NCBI RefSeq assembly: GCF_900105945.1
Contig: NZ_FNSO01000002.1
Location: forward strand, 682,001-746,000
DNA length: 64,000 bases
Direction of reading: 5' to 3'
From: Amycolatopsis tolypomycina
GTDB lineage: Bacteria > Actinomycetota > Actinomycetes > Mycobacteriales > Pseudonocardiaceae
Position numbers and translations under genes: made by a program
Shown here: positions 5,378-28,463 of the stretch, one piece after another
Position numbering within the stretch: the first letter of the stretch is position 1
Layout: each line of letters begins with the position of its first letter
The notes under the pieces: generated by a model
Databases searched by the model: none
Seen by the model: the letters and a program-made list of their open reading frames with translations, nothing else
What the model was told of the DNA's origin: nothing

Positions 5378-6085
5378 TCACGCCCAGGCCGGGAGCCGGG
5401 GCACGGCGCCGTCGAGGGCCGCGCCGTCGGAGCGCCCGCTGAGCCAGGCGAGCAGCGCCCCGGCCGACCCGCGGACGGTCGCCTTCGGAGCGGTGCCCAT
5501 CGTCCACTCGAACCCGTCGGCGGCCAGGCGCAGGGCCGGCAGGTGGGCACCGCGCGAGACGACGGCGTGCTGCACGACGTCCTCGGTGAGCGGCCCGAGC
5601 AGCGCCAGCACGCGGTCGAGGTCGTAGCCCCGGTCGAGGTCGGCGAGGTGGATGGTGAGCTCGGACAGCCGCATCCGCGCCACGACGGCCCCGGTGACGG
5701 GCGCACCCTGGCGGTTGCGGGCTTCGCGCGCCCAGGCGTCGTCCGGCATCCCGGCGGCGTACTGCTCGAACCGCCCGGCGGCCGCGACGAAGTCGGCGAG
5801 CAGCGCACCGGCCGCTTGCCGCGAGCTGGTTTCGATGTCCTGCTCGCGCGCCTCGGCGCTGGGGTACATCGGGGTCTCGACACCGGTGTTCGCCCAGGTC
5901 AGCAGGTTGCGCAGACCATCGGCATTGCGGGCGACGTGCGCGAGCACGTGGGCACGCGACCAGCCGGGCAACGCACTGGGGGCGCGCAGTTCGGGTTCAC
6001 CGAGGGCGCCGATGGCCAGCGCCCATTCGTCGTCGAGCTTCCGGATGCCGTCGAGCAGTGCGTGTGCCTTCTCGCATGCCGTCAC
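5378..6085 (-). CDS. Maleylpyruvate isomerase family (mycothiol-dependent) enzyme
   Basis: The 235-residue product has the DinB-like N-terminal bundle of mycothiol-dependent maleylpyruvate isomerases, with GWSRAHVLAHVARNADG near residues 41-57 and RMRLSELTIHLADLDRG near 135-151, whose His and Glu residues form the metal site. The C-terminal part resembles the MDMPI C domain. Many actinobacterial members have no known substrate and may be thiol transferases or detoxifying enzymes. It lies 10 bases downstream of the GMC oxidoreductase on the same strand, so the two are probably cotranscribed. Confidence 0.85.
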   Translation of the reverse strand: MTACEKAHALLDGIRKLDDEWALAIGALGEPELRAPSALPGWSRAHVLAHVARNADGLRNLLTWANTGVETPMYPSAEAREQDIETSSRQAAGALLADFVAAAGRFEQYAAGMPDDAWAREARNRQGAPVTGAVVARMRLSELTIHLADLDRGYDLDRVLALLGPLTEDVVQHAVVSRGAHLPALRLAADGFEWTMGTAPKATVRGSAGALLAWLSGRSDGAALDGAVPRLPAWA

Positions 6086-6095
6086 GGCCCCGAGT

Positions 6096-7805
6096 CTAGG
6101 ACCGCCGGAGGGCCGCCGGGGCGTCCGCGGGGACCGCCGGGTTCTTCGGCGCGATCGGCTCCAGCCGCACGTACGGCGCCTCCTGCGCCGGCCGCTGGTC
6201 CGGCTCGCCCTTGTTCGGCCAGAACGAAAACGCGCGCTCCGCCTGGGCCGTGATCGTCAGCGACGGGTTCACGCCCAGGTTGGCCGTGATCGCCGCGCCG
6301 TCCACCACCGACAGGCCCGGGTAGCCGAACACTCGGTGGTACGGGTCGATGACGCCCTCCTCCGCGCTGGCCCCGATCGGGACGCCGCCGATGAAGTGGG
6401 CCGTCAGGGGGATGTCGAAGATCTCGCCCCACGTGCCGCCCGCCATGCCGCCGATGCGCTCGGCCGTGCGCTCGTTCGCCTCGTGGCCGGCCGGGATGAA
6501 GCTCGGGTTCGGCTCGCCGTGGCCCTGCTTGGACGTGTACTTGCGCCGCCCGAAGAGGCCCCGTTTCGTGTACGTCGTGATCGAGTTGTCCAGGCTCTGC
6601 ATCACCAGCAGGATCACCGTGCGCTCGCTCCAGCGGTAGCCGTTGAGCAGCTTCGCCGCCTGGACCGGGTGCTTGAGCATGAACGTGACGGCCTGCCGCC
6701 AGCGCGGCACCGGCGAGGCGCCGTCCGTCGCGATCGTCTGCAGCAGGCTCATCGCGTTGCTGCCCTTGCCGTACCGCACCGGCTCGATGTGGGTGTTCTC
6801 GTCCGGGTGGATCGACGACGTGATCGCGACGCCGCGGCTGAAGTTCCGGCTCTCGTCGACGTCGGTCCGGGCCGCGCCGATGATCGCTTCGGAGTTCGTG
6901 CGGGTCAGCTCGCCGAGCCGGCGCGAAAGCCGGGGCAGCGTGCCCGTGTCCTTCATCCTGTGCAGCAGGTTCTGGGTACCCCACGTCCCCGCCGCGAAGA
7001 CGACCTTCTCGGCCGTGATCGTCGTCCGGAACTTCTTCGAAGTCGTCCCGGTCTTCTTGAGGCCGACTTCGTAGCCGCCGTCGACCGGCCGCACCGAGGT
7101 CACCGTCGTCAGCGGGATGACCTGCGCGCCGTCCTGCTCGGCGAGGTAGAGGTAGTTCTTGACCAGCGTGTTCTTCGCCCCGACACGGCAGCCCGTCATG
7201 CACGAGCCGCACTCCGTGCAGCCGACGCGCGAAGGGCCGGCGCCGCCGAAGTACGGGTCCGCCGCCTTCTCCCCCGGCTTGCCGAAGTAGACACCCACCG
7301 GCGTCGGGTGGAACGAATCGGCGACGCCCATGTCCTTCGCGACCTCGCGCATCACGACGTCCGACGGCGTGATCGTCGGGTTCGTGACGACGCCCAGCAT
7401 CCGGCTCGCCTGGTCGTAGTGCGGCGCGAGCTCGGCTTCCCAGTCGGTGATGTGCGCCCACTGCCGGTCGCGGTAGAACGGCTTGAGCGGCCGGTACAGC
7501 GTGTTCGCGTAGACGAGCGAACCGCCGCCGACACCGGCGCCCGCCAGCACCATGACGTCGTTGAGCATGTGGATGCGCTGGATGCCGTAGCAGCCGACCT
7601 GCGGCGCCCACAGGTAGCGTTTGAGGTCCCACGACGTCTTCGCGAACTCGTCGTCGGCGAACCTGCGCCCGGCCTCGATGACGGCTACCCGGTAGCCCTT
7701 CTCGGTGAGCCGCAGCGCCGCGACGCTGCCGCCGAACCCCGACCCCACCACGACGACGTCGTAGTCGGGGCCACCCGCACTGGTGGTGGTGTTACTGGCA
7801 GTCAC
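6096..7805 (-). CDS. GMC-family flavin oxidoreductase (ChoD-like)
   Basis: A 569-residue GMC oxidoreductase with the dinucleotide-binding VVGSGFGGS at residues 19-27 and the family signature around GAGVGGGSLVYAN. It lies beside guaB3 as choD does in mycobacteria, so it is probably the ChoD-like enzyme often labelled cholesterol oxidase. It also carries a cysteine cluster, C196-x2-C199-x2-C202-x3-C206, like a 4Fe-4S binding motif, which simple oxygen-dependent GMC oxidases lack. This suggests an electron acceptor other than oxygen. No signal peptide is seen. The start is GTG. Sterol activity is not shown by the sequence. Confidence 0.88.
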   Translation of the reverse strand: MTASNTTTSAGGPDYDVVVVGSGFGGSVAALRLTEKGYRVAVIEAGRRFADDEFAKTSWDLKRYLWAPQVGCYGIQRIHMLNDVMVLAGAGVGGGSLVYANTLYRPLKPFYRDRQWAHITDWEAELAPHYDQASRMLGVVTNPTITPSDVVMREVAKDMGVADSFHPTPVGVYFGKPGEKAADPYFGGAGPSRVGCTECGSCMTGCRVGAKNTLVKNYLYLAEQDGAQVIPLTTVTSVRPVDGGYEVGLKKTGTTSKKFRTTITAEKVVFAAGTWGTQNLLHRMKDTGTLPRLSRRLGELTRTNSEAIIGAARTDVDESRNFSRGVAITSSIHPDENTHIEPVRYGKGSNAMSLLQTIATDGASPVPRWRQAVTFMLKHPVQAAKLLNGYRWSERTVILLVMQSLDNSITTYTKRGLFGRRKYTSKQGHGEPNPSFIPAGHEANERTAERIGGMAGGTWGEIFDIPLTAHFIGGVPIGASAEEGVIDPYHRVFGYPGLSVVDGAAITANLGVNPSLTITAQAERAFSFWPNKGEPDQRPAQEAPYVRLEPIAPKNPAVPADAPAALRRS

Positions 7806-7959
7806 AGGTGGAGCGTAACTCCGGCTCCGCGTTCTGACCAGAGGTAAGTTACTCGCCGGTCATGCTTGTCCGACGACAACAGTGGGTAATCTCAGTACTG
7901 GTCGATGTCCACGTCGGCGAATCACCGCCGGTCGGGACACAAGGGCGGCAGACACCACC

Positions 7960-8154
7960 ATGAGCCCACGAACGCTCACCGGTTGGCGCAAGTCGAGCCA
8001 CAGCCACTTCGAAGAGAACGCCTGCGTCGAGATCGGCACCGGACCCGGGATCGTCGGGATCCGGGACACCAAGCAAGCGGCGCCCCGGCCCGTCCTCGTC
8101 TGCTCCGCGGCCGCCTTCGCGGCGTTCCGCGAGCACCTCACCGCCGGACGGTGA
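7960..8154 (+). CDS. DUF397 domain protein
   Basis: A 64-residue DUF397 protein with the characteristic GWRKSSHS opening, a central CVEI and a C-terminal hydrophobic stretch ending FAAFREHLTAG. In Streptomyces and relatives such proteins usually sit next to a helix-turn-helix regulator and belong to regulator/antiregulator pairs. Here no such partner lies next to it, as both neighbours are metabolic genes. The ATG at 7960 gives the usual N-terminus; an upstream in-frame ATG would add 26 atypical residues. No strong ribosome-binding site is seen. The last 17 bases overlap the opposing guaB3 gene. Confidence 0.85.
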   Translation: MSPRTLTGWRKSSHSHFEENACVEIGTGPGIVGIRDTKQAAPRPVLVCSAAAFAAFREHLTAGR

Positions 8155-9271
8155 GGCCCACCCGCTGGAACTCCTTGAGGTCCGAGTAACCCGTCTTCGC
8201 CATCGCGCGGCGAAGCGCCCCGAAGAGGTTGACCACGCCTTCCGCGTCCGAGGACGGCCCGAACAGCAGGGTCTTGAGGTCCACGGCGTAGTCGGGGCCG
8301 GCCGCCACGCGCGAGCGCGGCAGTGACGGGTGCGCCGCGGCCGCCGTCCAGTACAGGCCCTGACCGGGCGCGTCCGAGGCGGCGGCCAGCGGGGAGCCGA
8401 GCATGACGGCGTCCGCGCCGCACGCGATGGCCTTGGCGATGTCGCCCGACACCGTCATGCCGCCGTCGGCGAGCACGTGCACGTACCGGCCGCCCGTCTC
8501 GTCGAGGTAGTCGCGGCGGGCGGCCGCGGCGTCGATGATCGCGGTGGCCATCGGGACGCCGATGCCGAGCACGCGGTCGGTGCTCGTCACGCCCGGCGTG
8601 TAGCCGTGGCCGACGATGACACCGGCCGCGCCGGTGCGCATGAGGTGCATCGCGGTGCGGTAGTCGCTGACCCCGCCGGCGATGACGGGGACGTCGAGGC
8701 GGCCGATGAACTCCTTGAGGTTCAGCGGCTCGGCGTCGCGCTGGACGTGCTCGGCGGAGATGATCGTGCCCTGCACGACGAGGATCTCGACGCCGGCCGC
8801 GATCAGGTCGGGCGTCAGCTCGGCGGCGTGCTGCGGGCTGACCCGCGCGGCCACCGTGACGCCGGATTCGCGGACGGTCTTGATGGCCTCGGTCAGCAGG
8901 TCGAGCCGGATCGGCGCGGCGTGCAGCTCCTGGAGGACACGCCCGACGGCGGTCGGGTCCTCGAGGTCCTCGGCCGCGCGGACGAGCTGGAAGATGGCGT
9001 CCTCGACGTTCGCGTGCCGCGCCCAGAGTCCTTCGGCGTTGAGCACGCCCAGGCCGCCGAGCTCACCGACGGCGACCGCGGTGCCGGGCGAGACGATCGC
9101 GTCGGTCGGGTGCGTGACGAGCGGCAGGTCGAACCGGTAGGCGTCGATCTGCCAGGCGGTGGACACCACCGAGGACGAGCGCGTCCGCCGCGAGGGCACG
9201 ATCTCGACGTCATCGAGGTCATACGCCCGCCGCGCGGTGCGGCCCATCCCGATCTCGACCAGGTCCCGCAC
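8138..9271 (-). CDS. guaB3: GuaB3 family IMP dehydrogenase-like protein
   Basis: A 377-residue TIM-barrel protein of the GuaB3 family (like Rv3410c). It has the family-style N-terminus with DLDDVEIVPSRRTRSS and glycine-rich phosphate-binding turns including VIAGGVSDY, but no CBS domains. Its active-site loop lacks the GSICTT cysteine seen in GuaB in this window, so ordinary IMP dehydrogenase chemistry is doubtful. GuaB3 proteins have been linked to GMP reductase activity in some bacteria. The GTG start has GGAGG about six bases upstream. It sits between the GMC oxidoreductase and guaB, as in mycobacteria. Confidence 0.92.
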   Translation of the reverse strand: MRDLVEIGMGRTARRAYDLDDVEIVPSRRTRSSSVVSTAWQIDAYRFDLPLVTHPTDAIVSPGTAVAVGELGGLGVLNAEGLWARHANVEDAIFQLVRAAEDLEDPTAVGRVLQELHAAPIRLDLLTEAIKTVRESGVTVAARVSPQHAAELTPDLIAAGVEILVVQGTIISAEHVQRDAEPLNLKEFIGRLDVPVIAGGVSDYRTAMHLMRTGAAGVIVGHGYTPGVTSTDRVLGIGVPMATAIIDAAAARRDYLDETGGRYVHVLADGGMTVSGDIAKAIACGADAVMLGSPLAAASDAPGQGLYWTAAAAHPSLPRSRVAAGPDYAVDLKTLLFGPSSDAEGVVNLFGALRRAMAKTGYSDLKEFQRVGLTVRR

Positions 9272-17707: not shown

Positions 17708-19333
<1,626 letters not shown>

Positions 19334-19410
19334 TTACCTTTCGTTGAACGCAAGAACGCCCCGCTCCCCGGTCTTGCGGGGCCCGGGGCGTCATGCGCTG
19401 CGAGCGGACG

Positions 19411-19704
19411 TCAGTTGATGACGGCCAGCACGTCGCGGGCGGACAGGATGAGGTAGTCCTCGCCGTTGTACTTGACCTCGGTGCCGCCGTACTTGGAGTA
19501 GATGACGACGTCGCCGACGTTCACGTCGAGCGGGACGCGGTTGCCCTTGTCGTCGATCCGGCCCGGGCCCACGGCCAGAACCTTGCCCTCCTGGGGCTTC
19601 TCCTTGGCGGTGTCGGGGATGACGAGGCCGGAAGCGGTCGTCTCCTCGGCCTCGCTCGTCTGGACAACGATCTTGTCCTCGAGCGGCTTGATGTTCACGC
19701 TCAC
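19411..19704 (-). CDS. groES: 10-kDa co-chaperonin GroES
   Basis: The lid of the GroEL chamber. The 97 residues include [11 protein letters not shown], the mobile loop with [18 protein letters not shown] and the C-terminal [13 protein letters not shown]. The GTG at 19704 was chosen because GGAGG lies eight bases upstream and the resulting length is standard; a GTG five codons earlier would place the ribosome-binding site inside the coding region. First gene of the groES-groEL1 operon. Confidence 0.96.
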
Positions 19705-19801
19705 CGGGTTGACCTCCACGGTCGTCGAAAGCGTTGGCAGGATGTGGTTACGGCTCTACCACCCCCGCCGTCGCGGGTGCCGGGGCTGTCGGGCCGTGCA
19801 T

Positions 19802-19828
19802 TTAGCACTCTAGCCACGTGAGTGCCAG
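19802..19828 (-). promoter_or_regulatory. CIRCE operator (HrcA site) for groES-groEL1
   Basis: Read leftward: CTGGCACTC, nine bases, GAGTGCTAA, the actinobacterial form of the CIRCE inverted repeat bound by the heat-shock repressor HrcA. It lies about 100 bases upstream of the groES start. Confidence 0.93.
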
Positions 19829-19903
19829 TCGTGCAAGGAGGGTCCACCCGACGTGCGACACAGCCGCCGGACGGGCCCTGACCGGCCTCTTTGGGGTCAC
19901 CCC

Positions 19904-19957
19904 TGTCATGAAAGAGTCGTTCATGACATCCAGCGTCATGAACGACTCGTTCATGAC
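19904..19957. repeat. Tandem pair of TCATGAACGA-type palindromes
   Basis: The first copy (19904-19928) has 12-base arms with one mismatch around a single central base. The second (19935-19957) has perfect 11-base arms around a single base. They share the arm GTCATGAA and the core GACTCGTTCATGAC, separated by six bases. A related core occurs at 33023-33037. Confidence 0.75.
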
Positions 19958-20052
19958 ATCGCCGCGAGCCGACCCGGGCAGCCCTTACCCCGAACGTGAG
20001 TTTCTGGTTAGGTTCTCACCTCTGGCACCTGCACCCTGGGGGTTCATTGCCC

Positions 20053-21924
20053 ATGTCCCACCCCATTCCGAGAACGGCGGCCGCAGTCGCGGCCGTAGCC
20101 CTCCTCACCGGCCTCGCCACCCCGGCGTACGCCGACACCACCGCCCAACGCCAACGCGACTTCGCGACGGCAGCGGCCGAGTTCGGCGTCCCGGAGAACA
20201 TCCTCCTCGGCGTCTCCTACCTCGAGTCCCGCTGGGACACGAACGCCGGCACCCCGAGCACCTCGGCCGGCTACGGCCCCATGCACCTCACCGACCTCCG
20301 CGAGGCCGGCGTGGCGGGCACCCACCACGACGAGGGCACCGAAGACGCCCGGGGCGACGACGCCCGCCCCGCGGTCCACCCGCAGGCCGGCCCCGCGGCC
20401 CCGCCGCCCACGCTGCAGACCGTCGACGAGGCCGCGCGGCTGCTGAAAACCGACGCACGAACGCTGCGCACCGACCCCAGGCAGAACATCCGCGGCGGCG
20501 CGGCCCTCCTCGCGAAGTACAACACCGACGACAACTGGTACAACGCCGTCGCCCGCTACAGCGGCTCGGCCGACCAGGCCGCCGCGCGGACCTTCGCCGA
20601 CGAGGTCTTCGACACGATCAAGACCGGCATCACCCGGACCACGGACGACGGCCAGCAGGTCACCCTGAGCCCGACCCCAGGCCTGGCCGTCCCCCAGCAC
20701 GCCGAGACGACGCCGAAGAACGTCGAATGCCCGCGCAAGGTGACCTGCGAGTCCGTCCCCGCGCCGTACCAGGAGCTGCCGAACAACGACTACGGCAACC
20801 ACGACCTCGCGGACCGGCCGGACAGCCAGAAGATCGACCACATCGTCATCCACGACACGGAGGGCTACTGGGCCAACGTCCTCGACCTCGTCCAGGACCC
20901 GACGTACGTCAGCTGGCACTACAGCATCCGCTCGGCCGACGGCCTGATCGCGCAGCACGTGCCGACCAAGGACGTCGCCTGGCACGCCGGCAACTGGTAC
21001 GTCAACGCGAAGTCCATCGGCATCGAGCACGAGGGCTTCGCCGCGAAGGGCACCTGGTACACCGAGGCCATGTACCGCACGAGCGCGAAGCTCGTCGGCC
21101 ACCTCGCGCGCAAGTACGGCATCCCGCTCGACCGCGCGCACATCATCGGCCACGACAACGTGCCGGGCACGACGCCGGCGACCATCGCGGGCATGCACTG
21201 GGACCCGGGTCCCTACTGGGACTGGGCGCACTACTTCGACCTGATGGGCGCGCCGCTCGGCGGGTTCGGGCTGCCCGGCTCGTCGCTGGTCACCATCGAC
21301 CCGGACTTCGCGAAGAACCAGCCCGCGTTCACCGGCTGCGACAAGTCCGGCAGCGGCACGCCCTGCACGCTGCGGGGCTCGGAGGCCGTGGTGCTGCACT
21401 CGGAGCCGAGTGAGTCCTCGCCGCTGCTGGTCGACGTCGGCCTGCACCCGAAGGGGACGCCGTCCACGATGGACGTCGCCGACGTCGGCAGCCGGGTCGC
21501 CACCGGGCAGCGGTACGCCGTCGCCGAAGTCCGCGGTGACTGGACGGCCATCTGGTACCTCGGCCAGAAGGGCTGGTTCCACAACCCGCGCAACGCCCGG
21601 GTCGCGAAGCCCGCGTTCGGCTGGGTCGTGACGCCGAAGCCCGGCCTCGCAACCGTGCCGGTCTACGGCCGCGCCTACCCCGAACCGGAGGCCTACCCGG
21701 CCGGCGTCACCGTGCAGGCCATCACGCCGCTGCCGTACACGCTCTCCGCCGGCCAGAAGTACTCCTCGGGCGGGACGGTCGGCTCCGAGTACTACTGGGC
21801 GACCACGTTCGACCCGGCGAACCACGTCGTGGTGAAGGGCAAGCTCAAGTACGTCCAGATCCAGTTCGGGCACCGGATCGCCTTCGTCAAGGCCGACGAC
21901 GTCCGGATCGTCCCGGCGTTCTGA
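20053..21924 (+). CDS. Exported N-acetylmuramoyl-L-alanine amidase with lytic-transglycosylase-like N-terminus
   Basis: A 623-residue secreted wall hydrolase. A signal peptide ends near ATPAYA (about residue 26). Residues about 35-190 resemble a transglycosylase-type lysozyme fold with a Glu in GVSYLESRW and a GYGPMHL motif. Residues about 255-400 are an amidase_2/PGRP domain with HIVIHDTEG, WHAGNWYVN and IGHDNVPG, whose histidines fit the zinc site. The C-terminal 200 residues are SH3-like. It would cut muropeptides between MurNAc and L-Ala, and perhaps glycan strands. The ATG at 20053 gives a clean signal peptide. It faces the glycosyltransferase gene tail to tail. Confidence 0.9.
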   Translation: MSHPIPRTAAAVAAVALLTGLATPAYADTTAQRQRDFATAAAEFGVPENILLGVSYLESRWDTNAGTPSTSAGYGPMHLTDLREAGVAGTHHDEGTEDARGDDARPAVHPQAGPAAPPPTLQTVDEAARLLKTDARTLRTDPRQNIRGGAALLAKYNTDDNWYNAVARYSGSADQAAARTFADEVFDTIKTGITRTTDDGQQVTLSPTPGLAVPQHAETTPKNVECPRKVTCESVPAPYQELPNNDYGNHDLADRPDSQKIDHIVIHDTEGYWANVLDLVQDPTYVSWHYSIRSADGLIAQHVPTKDVAWHAGNWYVNAKSIGIEHEGFAAKGTWYTEAMYRTSAKLVGHLARKYGIPLDRAHIIGHDNVPGTTPATIAGMHWDPGPYWDWAHYFDLMGAPLGGFGLPGSSLVTIDPDFAKNQPAFTGCDKSGSGTPCTLRGSEAVVLHSEPSESSPLLVDVGLHPKGTPSTMDVADVGSRVATGQRYAVAEVRGDWTAIWYLGQKGWFHNPRNARVAKPAFGWVVTPKPGLATVPVYGRAYPEPEAYPAGVTVQAITPLPYTLSAGQKYSSGGTVGSEYYWATTFDPANHVVVKGKLKYVQIQFGHRIAFVKADDVRIVPAF

Positions 21925-21945: not shown

Positions 21946-23322
21946 TCACGCGTCGAGCGCGACCTTCACCCCGGCCGCCTGCTCGGTGTTGCGGCGCGTC
22001 TTCGCCCAGCCGTTGCGCCCGCGGACGAGCCGGAACAGCGCGCGCCACGACGTCACGTAGAACGTGTAGATGTACGCCGCGTACGCGAAGCCCATGCCCA
22101 GGCCGCGCAGGATGTTCTTGCTGCGCAGGCACTTCAGCTGGTAGATCGGGCCCCAGACGAGGAACGGCAGCAGCCCGAACGAGCCGTAGATGGCGAACAG
22201 GATCCAGGCTCCGTCGGTGAACCACGTCCACATCTGCGCCGGATCGCCCGCGGTGCCGATCACCAGCAGGACGAACGGGATCGGGTACAGCAGCGAGCCG
22301 AGCAGCTGCAGCCACGGCTGGGCCAGGTAGTACATCATCTCGGCCGCGCCGAGCGTGCTGACGTGCGGCGAGTCCCAGATCCGGCGCAGGTACCGGGCGC
22401 ACTGCATGGTGCCCTGGCCCCACCGCGTGCGCTGCACGAGGAACCGGCGCAGGCTGTACAGACCTTCCTGCGACACATGGGAATCCGGGGTGAACCCGGT
22501 GCGCCAGCCCGCGGTGAGCAGGTGGACGCCGAGTTCGAAGTCCTCCAGCAGCGAACCGCGCCACGGCTCTTCGTCGTCGCCCGCGATCGAATCCAGCGCG
22601 GTGAGCCGGGTGAACTGGCCGTTGCCGCCCATGGAGATCGTGCCGGTGAAGCCGCGGGACGTCTGGATCGCCGCGATCGCCGTGCGGAACTCCAGGTCCT
22701 GCAGCTGAGCGAGCTTGAGCCCGAACCAGCGGCCGACCGGGTTGCGGCTCGGCGGCGGGGTGCCGGCGTTGCCCATCCACACGTCGAGCTGCACCGCGCC
22801 GATCTCCGGGTCGCCGAAGAGGTGGCCCGCCGCGCAGACCTCGAGGCAGTTCGGGGCCGGGCGGCCGTCGGCGTCGACGACCACCACGACGACGTCGTCG
22901 CGGCTCGCGTCCGGGCCCATCCAGTCGTTCAGGGCGCGGTAGGCCGCGTTCAGCGCGTCGCCTTTGCCGGTGCGGGCTTCGGGCCGCACGCGCGGCACCA
23001 GGTGCAGGTACGGGTCGTAGCCGCCGTGCCGCCGCCACAGCATCCGGACGACCCGGGCGGTGCGGTCCTCCGAGTCGTCGTCGACGACCCAGACGTGCGC
23101 CTTGCGGAACGTCGTGCGCAGGTAGCGGATGGTCTCGCGGATGACCGTCTGCTCGTCGCGGCACGGCACGAAGAAGTGCCACGTGAAGTCCGCCGGGTCA
23201 CCGACCGGGGCGGGCTTGCGGCGCAGGTAGGGCACCACGATCACCACGACGTAGACGAGGAACGCCACGCTCATGGTGAGCGCGAACGCCTGCGTGATCG
23301 CGAGCAGGACCTTGACGCTCAT
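21946..23322 (-). CDS. Membrane-bound GT2 family glycosyltransferase
   Basis: A 458-residue processive-type family 2 glycosyltransferase. An N-terminal transmembrane helix (about 7-30) is followed by the GT-A domain with VVDDDSED, DADGRP, EDFELG and QRTRWGQG (the QxxRW motif of cellulose- and hyaluronan-synthase-like enzymes), then several membrane helices from about residue 310. It probably extrudes or lipid-links a polysaccharide from nucleotide sugars. Its ATG overlaps the stop of the exosortase gene (ATGA), so the two are translationally coupled. Product unknown; a WecB epimerase encoded nearby suggests an N-acetyl sugar. Confidence 0.9.
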   Translation of the reverse strand: MSVKVLLAITQAFALTMSVAFLVYVVVIVVPYLRRKPAPVGDPADFTWHFFVPCRDEQTVIRETIRYLRTTFRKAHVWVVDDDSEDRTARVVRMLWRRHGGYDPYLHLVPRVRPEARTGKGDALNAAYRALNDWMGPDASRDDVVVVVVDADGRPAPNCLEVCAAGHLFGDPEIGAVQLDVWMGNAGTPPPSRNPVGRWFGLKLAQLQDLEFRTAIAAIQTSRGFTGTISMGGNGQFTRLTALDSIAGDDEEPWRGSLLEDFELGVHLLTAGWRTGFTPDSHVSQEGLYSLRRFLVQRTRWGQGTMQCARYLRRIWDSPHVSTLGAAEMMYYLAQPWLQLLGSLLYPIPFVLLVIGTAGDPAQMWTWFTDGAWILFAIYGSFGLLPFLVWGPIYQLKCLRSKNILRGLGMGFAYAAYIYTFYVTSWRALFRLVRGRNGWAKTRRNTEQAAGVKVALDA

Positions 23323-23858
23323 GCCTTCTTCTTCCGCGTGGCGAGCCAGACGAACAGGACGATCGAGACGGCCCCGCCGAATACGCTGACCATCGAGCCG
23401 AGCAGCGTGTGACCCCAGTAGTAGCCCTCGTCCGTGCCGAACCCGTGCACGAGCCCGACGATCGTCAGAATGCGCAGCTGGTTCACCAGTACGACGACGG
23501 CCGCGGAAATGCCGAGCGAAAAGAAGAGCCGCCGCGCATTCGACGGCCGGAAGTAGAGCATGACCATGGTCACAACGAGCAGCGGGAGCAAAAGGAACGC
23601 CGAAGAACATTCCGGCGTCATTCTCAACCCGAACGGAGCAGCACTGGTCAACCCAAAGTAAACGGACTCCCGATCGGGGGCGACATAAACACCCGATGTA
23701 GTGAACAGATCGAGGATGACGCCGGCGAGCCGCACTTCCAGTTCGCGGTAGAACCGCTCGGCCAGCACCACCACGACACCCGCCGCGGCCAGCGCACTCA
23801 GCGCCAGTACCAGCGGAAACCTTGTCATTCCTGAGTTCGGAGCGCTCGCTACCGCCAC
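23319..23858 (-). CDS. Exosortase/archaeosortase-family protein
   Basis: A 179-residue polytopic membrane protein with about five hydrophobic segments. Cys84 in TPECSSAF, Arg129 in VNQLRI and His150 in YWGHTLLG match the Cys-Arg-His triad of exosortases and archaeosortases, transpeptidase-like enzymes that remove C-terminal sorting tails and transfer proteins to a membrane or wall anchor. The GTG start has AGGA five bases upstream. It is coupled to the GT2 gene and divergent from two genes whose products end in sorting-tail-like segments. The exact subfamily was not determined. Confidence 0.83.
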   Translation of the reverse strand: MAVASAPNSGMTRFPLVLALSALAAAGVVVVLAERFYRELEVRLAGVILDLFTTSGVYVAPDRESVYFGLTSAAPFGLRMTPECSSAFLLLPLLVVTMVMLYFRPSNARRLFFSLGISAAVVVLVNQLRILTIVGLVHGFGTDEGYYWGHTLLGSMVSVFGGAVSIVLFVWLATRKKKA

Positions 23859-24189
23859 GACGTTCCTCTCGGTGCCGATTTCCCGATCAAGCTGCGGACC
23901 CCTGGCGAGCGTAGGACATGTGTGCCGCGCGTTTCCACTCGGAGGGGTGGAAACGCCGCCCCAATCGGCTGGTCCTTCAGGGAACTTGTTACGCCATCCG
24001 AGTGATATCGAAAACGACCAGCGGAAACGGCGCCGAGCGATACCCGATCCGGTGATTCGGGAAATTTTGTGTGCTATTCGGCGCGGTCTTCGCGATAGTC
24101 GATCCGCGTGCCGAGTCGAGGCAAGCCGGTTCGATCCGCGCCGCCGTCACGCACCCCGGATAAATCCAGCGAATTCGGAGGACCACTTG
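23859..24189. other. Divergent promoter region of the exosortase locus
   Basis: About 330 bases between the leftward exosortase and rightward anchor-protein genes. It is noticeably more AT-rich than the rest around 24000-24100. GGAGG at 24177-24181 is the ribosome-binding site of the anchor gene. No inverted repeat or clear promoter boxes were identified. Confidence 0.55.
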
Positions 24190-24957
24190 ATGAAGAGCTC
24201 CCTCGTGCGCCGCGGCGGCCTGCTCGCCGCGGTCGTGGCGAGCGTCGTGCTCGCCGGCGCGGCCCCCGCTTCGGCGGCCCCCGGCGACGGGTCCGCGTAC
24301 GGCGTCAAGGTCGACGTCAAGCTGCTCGGCCAGGACGCGGTGAAGGCGGGCCCGTTCGCCGCCGCGAACACCGAAGGCCCGACGAGCAGCAGCCTGGCGA
24401 AGGTCGACCTCACCGGCATCCTCACCGCCGGCGCGATCAACACCGAGGCCAAGCGCGACGAGAACTCCGGTGCGGTGACGGCGAAGGCGAGCACCGCCGA
24501 CGTCACGCTGCCGCTGCTCAAGGCGGCGCTCGGCAACGTCGGCATCAAGCTCGTCGAGGCCGTCTGCACCGCGACGCAGAAGGGCGTCGAAGGCAGCACG
24601 AAGCTGGTCGGCGCGAACCTCGGCAGCGTCGGCGCGGTCGACGCCGCCCCGGCCGCGAACACGCAGATCAAGGTCGGTCTCGGCGCGCTCAACGTCGCGA
24701 CGATCATCCTCAACGAGCAGATCAAGAACAAGGACGGCAGCCTCACGGTGAACGCCGTCCACGTGAAGCTGCTCGGCGAAGGGCTCAAGGCGCTCGGCTC
24801 GGGTGACGTGATCGTGTCGTCGGCGACGTGCGGCCCGGCCGCGCCGCCGATGCCGCTGGCGTCCGGCGCCGGCCTCTGGATCGGGCTCGGCCTGCTCGGC
24901 GCCGTCGCGGTGCCGGTCGGCACCCGCATCTTCCGCCGCCGTTCCGCGCAAGCCTGA
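24190..24957 (+). CDS. Exported choice-of-anchor P-like surface protein
   Basis: A 255-residue secreted protein. The signal peptide ends at PASAAP (about residue 32). The mature part has regular Ala/Val/Gly-rich segments with GSAYGVKVDVKLLGQ and a symmetrical pair of cysteine-containing strands (AVCTATQKG, SSATCGP), resembling choice-of-anchor P or SCO1860-type proteins of actinomycetes. The C-terminus is a tripartite sorting-like tail: PMPLASGAG, a hydrophobic helix, then RIFRRRSAQA. The motif lacks the threonine of an LPxTG-like site, so it may be handled by the exosortase rather than a sortase (inference). GGAGG precedes the ATG. Confidence 0.8.
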   Translation: MKSSLVRRGGLLAAVVASVVLAGAAPASAAPGDGSAYGVKVDVKLLGQDAVKAGPFAAANTEGPTSSSLAKVDLTGILTAGAINTEAKRDENSGAVTAKASTADVTLPLLKAALGNVGIKLVEAVCTATQKGVEGSTKLVGANLGSVGAVDAAPAANTQIKVGLGALNVATIILNEQIKNKDGSLTVNAVHVKLLGEGLKALGSGDVIVSSATCGPAAPPMPLASGAGLWIGLGLLGAVAVPVGTRIFRRRSAQA

Positions 24958-24969
24958 GTGAGGTCGGAG

Positions 24970-25149
24970 ATGTACAAGATGCCGGGCGCCGGGGTCGGCG
25001 TGGCCGGTGGCGGGGTGGGCACCCTCGCCGCCACCGGCGCCGACATCGGGTGGTGGCTGGCCCTCGGCGTGCTGCTGGTCCTGCTCGGGACCGTCGCGCT
25101 GATCGCCGTCCACCGCCGCAACCGCCGTCTTTCCCCGGCGCGGGATTGA
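24970..25149 (+). CDS. Small protein consisting of an LAATG-type sorting tail
   Basis: A 59-residue protein with a short Gly-rich N-terminus, the pentapeptide LAATG (similar to the LAxTG site of class E sortases), a strongly hydrophobic helix of about 20 residues and a basic end (HRRNRRL). It has no signal peptide, so the whole protein is essentially a cell-wall sorting signal. It lies 12 bases after the anchor-protein gene and is surely cotranscribed. An alternative start 12 bases upstream exists. It may be a tiny wall-anchored or membrane accessory protein; function unknown. Confidence 0.7.
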   Translation: MYKMPGAGVGVAGGGVGTLAATGADIGWWLALGVLLVLLGTVALIAVHRRNRRLSPARD

Positions 25150-25213
25150 GCAGGCGGCCGCCGGCGTGCGCCCCTCGCACGCCGGCGGCCCGCCGGGTGG
25201 AAATTGCCGGACA

Positions 25214-26383
25214 ATGGACGATGTGGAGAAGGGGCGGCACGGGGTGGACGTGATGTTGCTGGCCGGGACGCGGCCGGAAGCCGTCAAGCTCGCGCCGCTG
25301 GCCCTGGCGCTGGCGGCGCACCCGGTGCTGCGCCCGGTCGTGGTCCACAGCGGCCAGCACCCGGGCATGGTCGAGCAGGCACTGGAGCCGTTCGGGCTGG
25401 CCGTGGACGTGTGGCTGAACGTGCCACCGCGGGTCACCGGCGGCCAGGCCGAGCTGGTGGCGGGCCTGCTCCCGGCGCTCGACGACGTCCTGCGCAGGCA
25501 CACCCCGGCGGCACTGGTGGTCCAGGGCGACACGACGACGACACTCGCCGGCGCGCTGGCGGCGTTCTGGCTCGGCATCCCGGTGGTCCACCTGGAGGCG
25601 GGGCTGCGCACCCACGACCTCGCGGCACCGTTCCCGGAGGAGGGCGCCCGTCAGATGGTGTCCCGCATCGCGGCACTGCACCTGACACCGACCCCGAGCG
25701 CGGCGGCGGCGTTGCGTTCGGAAGGCGTTGCGCGGCAACAGATAGCGGTGACGGGCAACACGGTGGTCGACGCGGTCCTGACGATCGCGGCCCGCGACCT
25801 GCCCGCCCGCGACACGGCACTGGCGTTGCTGGAGATGGAGATCGCGGAGGCGGGCGAGCGGCTGGTGCTGGTGACATCCCACCGCCGCGAGTCGTGGGGC
25901 GAACCCCTGGAGCGAACCCTGGCGGCGGTGCAGCTGATCGTGGCCGAGCACCCGGACGTCCAGGTGCTGTTCCCAGCGCACCCGAACCCCCAGGTCCGCA
26001 CCCAGGTCGAGGCGGCACTGGGCGGCCTGCCCCGAGTGACGGTGACGGACCCGCTGGAGTACCCGGACCTGGTCCGCGCGTTGCGCCTGGCCTCCCTGGT
26101 CTTGACGGATTCGGGCGGAATCCAGGAGGAAGCCCCGACGTTCGGCACCCCGGTGGTGGTCCTGCGCGACGTGACAGAGCGCGCAGAGGTGGTGGAGGCG
26201 GGCTGCGCCTGGCTGGCGGGAACGGACACGGCCCGCATCGTGGACCTCGCGGCGCGGTTGCTGAGCGGGGAACTGCGGCCGGCCCAGGTAGGGAACCCGT
26301 ACGGAGAGGGAAACGCGGCAGCCCTGGCGGTGGCGGCGATCGAGGAGCTACTGGCGGTGCGCACGGCGGCGACGGCGTCCTAA
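25214..26383 (+). CDS. wecB: UDP-N-acetylglucosamine 2-epimerase (non-hydrolysing)
   Basis: Interconverts UDP-GlcNAc and UDP-ManNAc in the cytoplasm. The 389-residue product has the family motifs GTRPEAVKLAPL at the N-terminus, VVHSGQH, VQGDTTTTLAGALAA, VHLEAGLRT, VTSHRRESWG and the UDP-binding LTDSGGIQEEAPTFGTPVVVLR. It follows the LAATG gene on the same strand by 64 bases and probably supplies ManNAc for a surface glycan made by the coupled GT2 enzyme. The ATG at 25214 is used; a GTG ten codons on has an AAGGGG eight bases upstream and is an equally good start. Confidence 0.94.
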   Translation: MDDVEKGRHGVDVMLLAGTRPEAVKLAPLALALAAHPVLRPVVVHSGQHPGMVEQALEPFGLAVDVWLNVPPRVTGGQAELVAGLLPALDDVLRRHTPAALVVQGDTTTTLAGALAAFWLGIPVVHLEAGLRTHDLAAPFPEEGARQMVSRIAALHLTPTPSAAAALRSEGVARQQIAVTGNTVVDAVLTIAARDLPARDTALALLEMEIAEAGERLVLVTSHRRESWGEPLERTLAAVQLIVAEHPDVQVLFPAHPNPQVRTQVEAALGGLPRVTVTDPLEYPDLVRALRLASLVLTDSGGIQEEAPTFGTPVVVLRDVTERAEVVEAGCAWLAGTDTARIVDLAARLLSGELRPAQVGNPYGEGNAAALAVAAIEELLAVRTAATAS

Positions 26384-26937: not shown

Positions 26938-27984
26938 CTACAGCGAGACCACCTGAACCGGCAAAGCTGGATTGGCACTGAACTCCAACGGCGCGGTCGG
27001 CCGCTTAGCCGCCACAACATGCGCACCCAAGGCGGCGATCATCGCCCCGTTATCAGTGCACAACCGAGGCCGAGGAACCCGCAACTCGATCCCCGCCGCA
27101 GCACAACGCTCGGCCGCCAGCTCCTTGAGCCGCGAATTCGCCGCCACCCCACCGGAGATCACCATGGTGTCGATCCCCTGCTCCTTGGCAGCACGAATCG
27201 CCTTGGCGGTCAACACATCCGCAACAGCCTCCTGGAACGACGCCGCAACATCGTCCACCGGGATCTCCTCACCACGCCGAGCAGCTCCCTCAACCCAACG
27301 CGCCACCGCAGTCTTCAAACCAGAGAAGGAAAAATCAAAGGCAGCATCCCGCGGCCCGGTCATCCCCCGAGGAAAAGCAATCGCCGACGGATCACCGTTC
27401 TTGGCCGCCTTGTCGATCGGCGGCCCGCCCGGGTACGGCAGGCCGAGCACCCGCGCGACCTTGTCATAAGCCTCACCAGCAGCGTCGTCCACAGTGGACC
27501 CCAGCTCGGTGATCGACGACGCGATGTCGTCCACCCGCAGCAGCTGCGTGTGCCCACCGGAAACCAGCAACGCCAGGCACGGCGTGGGCAGCGGCCCGTG
27601 CTGCAGCGTATCCACCGCAATATGCCCAGCCAGATGATTGACGCCGTACAGCGGCACATCCAAAGCGGTCGCATACGCCTTCGCCGCCGAGACACCGACG
27701 AGCAGCGCGCCCGCCAGCCCCGGCCCGGCCGTCACGGCAATCGCGTCCACATCGGACATCGAAAGCCCAGCCGTGGCAAACGCCCGAGACGTGGTCGGGA
27801 CCATCGCTTCAAGGTGCGCCCGGCTGGCGACCTCGGGCACCACACCACCGAACCGCGCATGCTGCTCCACACTGGAGGCCACCTCGTCGGCCAGCAGCTC
27901 AACAGTGCCGTCGTCATGCAGCCGGACCAGGCCGACACCAGTCTCGTCGCACGAGCTCTCGATACCCATGATGATGCGTGCCAT
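26938..27984 (-). CDS. tsaD: tRNA N6-threonylcarbamoyladenosine transferase TsaD
   Basis: Catalytic subunit of the t6A complex, which transfers threonylcarbamoyl to A37 of ANN-decoding tRNAs. The 348-residue length is normal. The ASKHA-fold motifs are [14 protein letters not shown] at the N-terminus, the metal-binding [14 protein letters not shown], and the C-terminal [11 protein letters not shown] with TDNGAMIA. The ATG overlaps the rimI stop by one base, so translation is coupled in tsaB-rimI-tsaD. Its partner TsaE lies about 5 kb away, the matB block having been inserted between. Third-position GC is a little lower than that of its neighbours over its 3' half. Confidence 0.97.
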
Positions 27985-28463
27985 CAGCCCGCCACCCCGT
28001 CTCGCGTCCGCGCCGGGCGGACCATCGTGTACGCGTCGGCGCCGGAAGGCTGGTAGTAGCGCTTCCGGATGCCGAGCCGTTCGAAGCCGTGGCGCTCGTA
28101 CAGGGCGAGCGCCGTCGTGTTGTCCGTGCGGACCTCGAGGAAGACCGGCGCCTCGAACTCGTCGGCCCGCGCCAGCAGCGCCTGCAGCAGCGCCTTGCCG
28201 ATGCCCTGGCCCTGGTACTCCGGCGCGACGCCGATCGTGTGCACGGTCGCCTCGTACTCGCCGCGGCGGCGCCCGACGACGGCCAGCCCGGCGTAGCCGA
28301 GCAGCTCGTCGCCCTCGTCCGGGCGCGCGGCCAGGTAGAAGTTGCCCGCGTCCAGCTCGGAATGGAACGCGCGGGCGCTCCACGGGTCGTCGCCGGGGAA
28401 CAGGATCTGCTCGATCTCCACGCACCGGGCGATGTCCATGCGGCGCAGGGGGCCGAGTCTCAC
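27984..28463 (-). CDS. rimI: RimI-type protein N-alpha-acetyltransferase
   Basis: A 159-residue GNAT enzyme that acetylates protein N-termini (ribosomal S18 in E. coli). Family features are [10 protein letters not shown] near the N-terminus, the acetyl-CoA loop [29 protein letters not shown] and the C-terminal [15 protein letters not shown]. The GTG start overlaps the tsaB stop (GTGA) and the stop overlaps the tsaD start, so all three are translated as a unit. This order is the same as Rv3421c-Rv3419c. Confidence 0.94.

What the first reader, a model, noticed from the sequence alone, without database searches (positions are those of the whole stretch)
21946..26383. Exosortase locus with GT2, an anchor-P-like protein, an LAATG-tail peptide and WecB
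Two divergent units face each other: exosortase-GT2 (overlapping ATGA) and anchor protein-LAATG peptide-WecB. The exosortase has a clear Cys84-Arg129-His150 triad. The neighbours supply candidate substrates with sorting-like tails and sugar-nucleotide and polymer enzymes. This suggests a system that attaches surface proteins to a glycan or glycolipid in an actinomycete, which is poorly described.
Basis: partly seen in the sequence, partly recalled or inferred. Interest (0 to 1): 0.85.

Follow-up and report, generated by a model that had tools for sequence, protein, structure and literature searches.

The report
Exosortase cluster with tyrosine-tipped wall peptide
A soil actinomycete carries a five-gene cluster in which a membrane enzyme probably trims and re-anchors a surface protein, beside a sugar-polymer enzyme and a tiny tyrosine-tipped peptide that looks built to be fastened to the cell wall.

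Summary
The window holds exosortase P (XrtP) and a GT2 sharing ATGA, divergent from CoaP, a 59-aa LAATG peptide and WecB. NCBIfam already has models for all five, so the XrtP locus is catalogued; seven paper searches with capped lists showed no paper on it. All 70 named XrtP loci keep the same order and orientation, and Cys84/Arg129/His150 is invariant in 70 of 70. CoaP, with an invariant PxP[LM]ASGxG[LM]W tail, is the likely substrate.

The LAATG peptide is the surprise. It has no evident signal peptide, a tyrosine at position 2, and a class-E sortase motif. Relatives below the NCBIfam cut-off sit beside other exosortases, are fused to the exosortase N-terminus in 29 proteins, and also occur without exosortase. 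There they lie next to a GT2 gene in 13 of 13 loci fetched, against 0 of 39 hits in longer frames. So the peptide is best read as regular partner of a GT2 and wall anchor of its product, with the exosortase as an add-on for CoaP. Not every such GT2 has the peptide (L131). Nothing was tested at the bench.

The parts
23319..23858 (-). xrtP, exosortase P, 179 aa; Cys84 (23607-23609), Arg129 (23472-23474), His150 (23409-23411)
   Evidence: NF012139 268 bits, cut-off 200; C/R/H invariant in 70 of 70
21946..23322 (-). membrane GT2, 458 aa, with D81-D82, D150-A-D152, E260-D261 and QRTRW (297-301)
   Evidence: NF053846 'XrtP-associated glycosyltransferase' 725 bits, cut-off 520; these residues are invariant across 70 loci
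23859..24189 (.). divergent intergenic region between the two units
   Evidence: sequence; no sigma-70-like site found in 23600-24400
24190..24957 (+). coaP, choice-of-anchor P protein, 255 aa: signal-peptide-like N-terminus, beta-rich domain, C-terminal helix and basic end
   Evidence: NF040603 and NF053845; AlphaFold2 mean pLDDT 84
24844..24948 (+). CoaP C-terminal sorting signal PMPLASGAGLW + TM + RRR
   Evidence: CoaP_CTERM match; PxP[LM]ASGxG[LM]W in 69 of 69 readable loci, 1 further locus masked
24970..25149 (+). small peptide, 59 aa: Met-Tyr start, Gly-rich stretch, LAATG, TM helix, basic tail; no evident signal peptide
   Evidence: NF058583 94 bits, cut-off 65; start codon + Tyr in 70 of 70 and LAxTG in 70 of 70 XrtP loci
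25024..25038 (+). LAATG motif (class E sortase-type signal)
   Evidence: translation; LAXTG is the class E signal (PMC5148588 passages)
25214..26383 (+). wecB, non-hydrolysing UDP-GlcNAc 2-epimerase, 389 aa
   Evidence: TIGR00236 366 bits, cut-off 210; best of 4 matches in the genome

Best explanation
Two linked surface-assembly modules share one locus. Module 1 (XrtP + CoaP): CoaP is secreted and held by its C-terminal helix; XrtP cuts at the PxP[LM]ASGxG[LM]W signal with Cys84 and moves CoaP to a new anchor (an aminolipid, or the product of the GT2). Module 2 (GT2 + WecB + Met-Tyr-LAATG peptide): WecB makes UDP-ManNAc, the membrane GT2 builds a glycan from a UDP-amino sugar, and the peptide, inserted N-out/C-in without a signal peptide, is the regular partner of that GT2. 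A class E sortase encoded elsewhere joins the peptide through LAAT to peptidoglycan, so that its Tyr-tipped head tethers the GT2 product (or the synthase) to the wall. Shown: gene content, synteny, conserved residues, fusion, adjacency to GT2. Inferred: topology, cleavage, sortase use, polymer identity, and any glycan-peptide link.
For: Synteny in 70 of 70 named loci. In 100 Pseudonocardiaceae genomes, 16 have XrtP over cut-off and in 16 of 16 the GT, CoaP_CTERM and small-peptide matches lie within about 2 kb (the peptide of G275 is below its cut-off). CoaP_CTERM is over cut-off in 18 genomes: those 16, G251 (two XrtP copies below cut-off) and G271. Where the exosortase lacks Cys and His (G303/L124), CoaP is absent but GT, peptide and WecB remain. 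Exosortase-free peptides with Tyr at position 2-4: 13 of 13 fetched are beside a GT2 gene, 5 of them found after the idea was formed; controls 0 of 39. The window's own genome has a GT + VY..LATTG pair without exosortase beside it. Peptide and exosortase fused in 29 proteins. One class E sortase over cut-off among the 4 of 9 sortase matches that I classified.
Against: No bench data. Nothing shows that the peptide is cut by a sortase or carries a glycan; the GT2 active site is expected on the cytoplasmic side, so glycosylation of an extracellular Tyr would need an unproven step. The fusion of peptide to exosortase argues for a direct exosortase link too. The link is one-way: L131 (G290) has GT, WecB and a tailless CoaP paralogue but neither exosortase nor peptide. 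11 of 11 GT-WecB loci without exosortase beside them (L172-L182) have a small TM peptide without LAxTG (homology not proven; no hit with my two peptide profiles). G271 has CoaP without XrtP, with another exosortase elsewhere. In L123 the peptide lost its MYK start where GT and XrtP are gone, which fits dependence on either. The exosortase-free GT2s tested are distant from the XrtP-associated GT (22-41 bits for five proteins).
Confidence: 0.48

Rival explanations
1. One reading: XrtP processes both CoaP and the LAATG peptide and moves both to a glycan or glycolipid made by GT2 and WecB.
For: Both tails share an LA..[ST]G core, a following Trp in nearly all XrtP loci and a basic end. Peptides are close to or fused with exosortases.
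Against: N-Tyr LAxTG peptides occur beside GT2 with no exosortase match in the fetched stretches and beside a pseudo-exosortase. LAXTG is the known class E sortase signal (PMC5148588 passages) and the genome has such a sortase.
Confidence: 0.2
2. The peptide is an uncut accessory subunit of the GT2 synthase, working like IcaD/PgaD; its LAxTG is incidental or used only for turnover.
For: Gene adjacency to GT2; invariant Gly40 inside the TM helix in 21 sequences; GT-WecB pairs without exosortase have TM peptides without LAxTG.
Against: L[AP]x[TS]G is in 95 of 96 homologues, though the profile that found them contains the motif. L131 has the GT without a peptide.
Confidence: 0.2
3. Relay: XrtP joins CoaP to the free N-terminus (Met-Tyr) of the peptide, and sortase then fixes the peptide, and so CoaP, to the wall.
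For: Invariant N-terminus without signal peptide; 29 fusions put this N-terminus on the exosortase itself; explains why one locus has both kinds of signal.
Against: Peptides occur at exosortase-free loci and in a CoaP-free locus; the head varies to MPY and MANY.
Confidence: 0.08
4. The genes are neighbours by general chromosomal synteny and not a functional unit.
For: In the window the locus sits between tsaD and groES-groEL, genes that also flank about half of the full-flank loci.
Against: Cluster intact in 70 of 70 loci, while those flanks are found in only 30-31 of 63.
Confidence: 0.02

Closest known systems
NCBIfam XrtP set (NF012139, NF053846, NF053845, NF058583)
   Same: The window's proteins score over the curated cut-offs; the GT model is named for its association with XrtP.
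   Different: I saw model names only, no published account. The two fused exosortases tested and the nine non-XrtP peptides tested miss every XrtP/R/S and NF058583 cut-off.
PEP-CTERM / XrtA exopolysaccharide-linked exosortase systems
   Same: Exosortase beside polysaccharide genes, substrate with motif + TM + basic end (PMC1569441 abstract; PMC12188702 passages).
   Different: No PEP motif, one CoaP_CTERM match in the genome, no outer membrane of the Gram-negative kind, and an added LAxTG peptide.
XrtG with its GT2 (TIGR03110/TIGR03111), Gram-positive
   Same: Exosortase family with an associated GT2 (model names).
   Different: Scores far below the cut-off (23 bits against 102.75 for XrtG).
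Class E sortase and LAXTG proteins (chaplins of Streptomyces)
   Same: LAXTG + TM + basic tail; class E sortase in the genome.
   Different: The peptide is 59 aa with no evident signal peptide, 18 residues before the motif, and an invariant Tyr2.
PgaC/IcaA-type GT2 with small PgaD/IcaD partner
   Same: Membrane GT2 plus small membrane protein; the five exosortase-free GT2s scanned match PgaC/IcaA best (PgaD/IcaD from recall).
   Different: 70-98 bits against a cut-off of 422; the partner carries a wall-sorting motif.

Membership tests
Exosortase P | Score over the curated NCBIfam cut-off | tested here: met
   268 bits, cut-off 200
Exosortase P | Cys-Arg-His catalytic residues aligned with other exosortases | tested here: met
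   invariant in 70 of 70 XrtP loci; the matching residues are invariant in 34 distant exosortases and align with XrtP
Exosortase P | Cuts and re-anchors a C-terminally tagged protein | not testable with these tools
   needs a mutant or purified enzyme
PEP-CTERM/XrtA system | Pro-Glu-Pro motif | tested here: not met
   tail is PxP[LM]ASGxG[LM]W with M, I or V in the middle of PxP
PEP-CTERM/XrtA system | Several substrates per genome | tested here: inconclusive
   one CoaP_CTERM match in the genome, with 68 of 145 first-look candidates scored; other tail types were not sought
Class E sortase substrate (the small peptide) | LAXTG, then TM helix, then basic residues | tested here: met
   window translation; LAxTG in 70 of 70 XrtP loci
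Class E sortase substrate (the small peptide) | N-terminal signal peptide | tested here: not met
   Met-Tyr start followed by a Gly-rich stretch, judged by eye; no signal-peptide program was run
Class E sortase substrate (the small peptide) | Class E sortase in the same genome | tested here: met
   NF033747 237.6 bits, cut-off 160, on L136 from G000:C3; 4 of 9 sortase matches classified
Class E sortase substrate (the small peptide) | Covalent attachment to peptidoglycan | not testable with these tools
   needs wall analysis
Non-hydrolysing UDP-GlcNAc 2-epimerase | Score over TIGR00236 cut-off | tested here: met
   366 bits, cut-off 210
PgaC/IcaA poly-GlcNAc synthase (the GT2) | Score over TIGR03937 cut-off | tested here: not met
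   36.6 bits, cut-off 422.3

The most novel reading that the evidence does not exclude
Actinomycetota have a widespread, unnamed device for fixing a GT2-made glycan to the wall: a ~50-60-aa tyrosine-tipped micro-peptide, encoded beside the GT2, whose Tyr is the glycan attachment point and whose LAxTG end is joined to peptidoglycan by sortase. Exosortase systems such as XrtP are one elaboration of it, some with the peptide fused to the exosortase, some with a catalytically dead exosortase.
Probability: 0.17. Interest if true: 0.88.

Novelty: new variant of a known kind. Interest (0 to 1): 0.62.

Why it matters
Exosortases are best known from Gram-negatives and archaea; what they do in actinomycetes is open in the papers I searched. 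This locus pairs one enzyme with one detected substrate, which makes it testable. The wider pattern, a tyrosine-tipped LAxTG micro-peptide beside a GT2 and at times fused to an exosortase, ties three things together (sortase, exosortase, glycan synthesis) and suggests how such glycans might be held on a wall. The natural variants (fusion, dead exosortase, exosortase-free pairs) act as ready-made controls.

Tried and rejected

Limits. The MY search demands Tyr as second codon, so Tyr2 in L126, L164 and L168 is by construction; L125, L130, L163, L166, L167 and L169 also scored with the profile. In the 70 XrtP loci the start was taken as the nearest start codon followed by Tyr; the frames show the same start. 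The 8 hits were chosen by eye (small open frames or start at model position 1) from a cut list; the 8 are all hits on the cut list that start at model position 1-2 outside known loci. L215, L216 and L221 are one genus, so the 13 loci are not all independent. The 70 loci were drawn by XrtP similarity. Homologue searches scored only the 7988-7999 best-sharing candidates. Paper lists were capped (40 of 71, 40 of 69, 10 of 395, 25 of 42).
Full report
What is there. The minus strand carries xrtP (23319-23858) and a GT2 (21946-23322) that share ATGA; the plus strand carries coaP (24190-24957), a small gene for 59 residues (24970-25149) and wecB (25214-26383). The two units diverge from a 331-bp gap. 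NCBIfam models exist for all five and each is passed over its cut-off: exosortase P, XrtP-associated glycosyltransferase, choice-of-anchor P with CoaP_CTERM, LAXTG small protein, WecB. So the XrtP locus as such is catalogued, though I saw only the model names. Seven searches of open papers listed no paper on XrtP, CoaP, the small peptide or a peptide-exosortase fusion; several lists were capped, and preprints and most subscription papers are not in that library.

Is it conserved. A scan with XrtP gave 70 named loci, labelled Amycolatopsis, Lentzea, Saccharothrix, Actinokineospora, Actinosynnema, Umezawaea, Solihabitans and, once, Nocardia sp.. All 70 hold all five genes in the same order and orientation. 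These loci were drawn by XrtP, so the count speaks for the other four genes. The flanks differ: amidase, groES, groEL and tsaD are found in 31, 30, 30 and 31 of 63 loci with full flanks, so the cluster is held together at different sites. In a draw of 100 genomes of the family, 16 have XrtP over cut-off; in 16 of 16 the GT, CoaP_CTERM and small-peptide matches lie within about 2 kb (in G275 the peptide is below its cut-off). In 246 genomes drawn across the phylum only the window's own passes the XrtP cut-off.

The exosortase and CoaP. Cys84, Arg129 and His150 are invariant in 70 of 70. The CoaP tail fits PxP[LM]ASGxG[LM]W in 69 of 69 readable loci; one (L078) is masked. 30 loci have a second choice-of-anchor P protein, none with an ASG tail; those printed end right after the domain. 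CoaP_CTERM is over cut-off in 18 of 100 genomes: the 16, G251 (two XrtP copies at 191 and 177 bits, below cut-off) and G271, which has CoaP apart from any XrtP and another kind of exosortase elsewhere. In G303 (L124) the exosortase-like protein lacks Cys and His and CoaP is absent, while GT, peptide and WecB remain; a 49%-identical homologue, P0137, lacks Cys and His too. This ties CoaP to an active exosortase, with G271 as the loose end. AlphaFold2 gives CoaP a beta-rich domain (34-214) and a C-terminal helix (226-254), mean pLDDT 84, without a convincing PDB match.

The small peptide. In 70 of 70 XrtP loci a start codon (ATG 60, GTG 10) is followed by Tyr, position 3 is Lys (57) or Arg (13), and LAxTG is present (LAATG 44, LAVTG 21, others 5). 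Against 13 close relatives of equal length (a fourteenth, L060, was skipped), codon differences are 62 synonymous and 42 non-synonymous, which fits a selected protein. It has no evident signal peptide (by eye) and a basic C-terminal end, so N-out/C-in is expected from the positive-inside rule. LAXTG is the class E sortase signal (PMC5148588, passages); the genome has 9 sortase-domain matches, of which I classified 4: one class E over cut-off, two class F over cut-off, one class F match below cut-off.

Beyond XrtP. Searches with the XrtS and XrtR models in 296 class genomes found no genome over their cut-offs, but 10 and 8 genomes (the window's own included) with weaker matches. Of the nine other regions fetched, six have a separate Met-Tyr peptide near the exosortase and GT (L163, L164, L166-L169; in L163 the aligned motif is LLFNG, with an LPQTG further up), one (L165) has it fused, and two (L170, L171) have none nearby and are weak matches of another kind. 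Three family loci (L125, L126, L130) also have it. In 21 aligned peptides M1, Y2, L19, G23 and G40 are invariant; L164 and L168 among them were found by a search that demands Tyr2. Of 96 homologues, 91 have Tyr2 and 95 have L[AP]x[TS]G. As a background, the same search criteria over 1.39 Mb of the 70 loci gave 32 other Met-Tyr TM candidates, 0 of them with the motif.

Fusion. The L165 reading frame is one protein. A search with it gave 34 proteins; 29 (P0006-P0034) carry the peptide domain in front of the exosortase, 27 of them starting [MV]Y, and C131, R176 and H196 are invariant in all 34. The model of P0006 shows a disordered head (1-25), one helix (27-51), then the exosortase (mean pLDDT 78), with no PDB match. 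Neither P0006 nor P0030, the two scanned, passes the XrtP, XrtR or XrtS cut-off.

Without exosortase. A profile of the 21 peptides in 296 class genomes gave further small frames. Of 8 that I chose by eye and fetched, six start MY and two MPY; all 8 are next to a GT2 gene, one also next to WecB (L217). I then made a prospective test: a new profile of 26 peptides in 396 phylum genomes; the 8 hits on its cut list that start at model position 1-2 outside known loci were fetched. Six are stand-alone peptides, five starting MY and one MANY; 6 of 6 are next to a GT2 gene, and one of these (L251, outside the class) also has an exosortase. The other two (L256, L257) lie in longer frames and show no GT2. 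So exosortase-free peptides next to a GT2 number 13 of 13 (8 + 5), three of them from one genus. As a control, a GT2 profile built from the first eight found no GT2 in the 39 stretches of 2.2-3.2 kb returned where the hit lies in an open frame over 120 aa (L199 and L241, where a Met-Tyr start lies inside a longer frame, were counted as peptides); two further small frames without an N-terminal Tyr (L228, L245) have none either. Absence of exosortase was judged with my XrtP profile in the fetched stretches, also at E <= 1. The shift of Tyr from position 2 to 3 or 4 speaks for a need for Tyr itself rather than for a start-codon context.

Against a strict rule. L131 (G290) has a GT of the XrtP-associated kind (394 bits, below cut-off), WecB and a tailless CoaP paralogue, but no exosortase and no peptide by search or profile. 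The eroded locus L183 has no peptide either. Eleven GT-WecB pairs without exosortase beside them (L172-L182) each have a 50-61-aa TM peptide upstream of the GT, without LAxTG; I picked these by eye, and their homology to the Tyr peptides is not proven (hhalign probability 22-57%; no profile hit). So the peptide predicts a GT2, but a GT2 does not predict the peptide.

Reading. CoaP follows the active exosortase; the Tyr peptide follows a GT2 with or without exosortase. I therefore favour two modules at one site: exosortase for CoaP, and GT2 + WecB + sortase-type peptide for a wall-held glycan. That exosortases go with polysaccharide genes and help hold polymers on cells is known elsewhere (PMC1569441, abstract; PMC12188702, passages; PMC11980579, passages). 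The glycan-on-Tyr idea is the boldest version and rests on adjacency and conservation alone. QxxRW as a mark of processive GT2s, PgaD/IcaD as small partners, and Cys/Arg/His as exosortase residues are from recall, apart from the alignments made here.

Noticed in passing
L122 (window's own genome, G000:C3:948000-964000), GT 6517-7875, peptide near 8218-8361: A second GT2 + VY..LATTG peptide pair in the same genome without XrtP, CoaP or WecB beside it.
   Followed up: partly
L124:8640-9209 and P0137: Exosortase-like proteins without the catalytic Cys and His, in two sequences 49% identical; a possible pseudo-exosortase, in L124 kept beside GT2 and peptide.
   Followed up: partly
L183 (G302): Eroded XrtP locus: exosortase and GT in separate broken frames, WecB and the tailless CoaP paralogue apparently whole.
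   Followed up: no
L131 (G290:C236): GT, WecB and tailless CoaP paralogue without exosortase or peptide.
   Followed up: partly
L084-L120, e.g. L085:6685-7371: Second choice-of-anchor P protein in 30 of 70 XrtP loci, none with the ASG tail; those printed end right after the domain.
   Followed up: no
L172-L182: Divergent GT-WecB pairs without exosortase beside them, each with a small TM peptide starting MS, MA or MY and lacking LAxTG.
   Followed up: partly
L128 and L129 (G251): One genome with two complete XrtP-type loci whose XrtP scores fall below the cut-off.
   Followed up: no
L127:7393-8118 (G271): CoaP with an XrtP-type tail but no XrtP nearby; the genome has another type of exosortase on a different contig.
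   Followed up: no
L165 near 5999-6600: Secreted protein with a TM and basic tail just upstream of the fused exosortase; candidate substrate.
   Followed up: no
window 17708-21924 and 26938-28425: groEL, groES, an amidase/SLT-domain protein and tsaD flank the cluster in the window, and about half of the related loci.
   Followed up: partly
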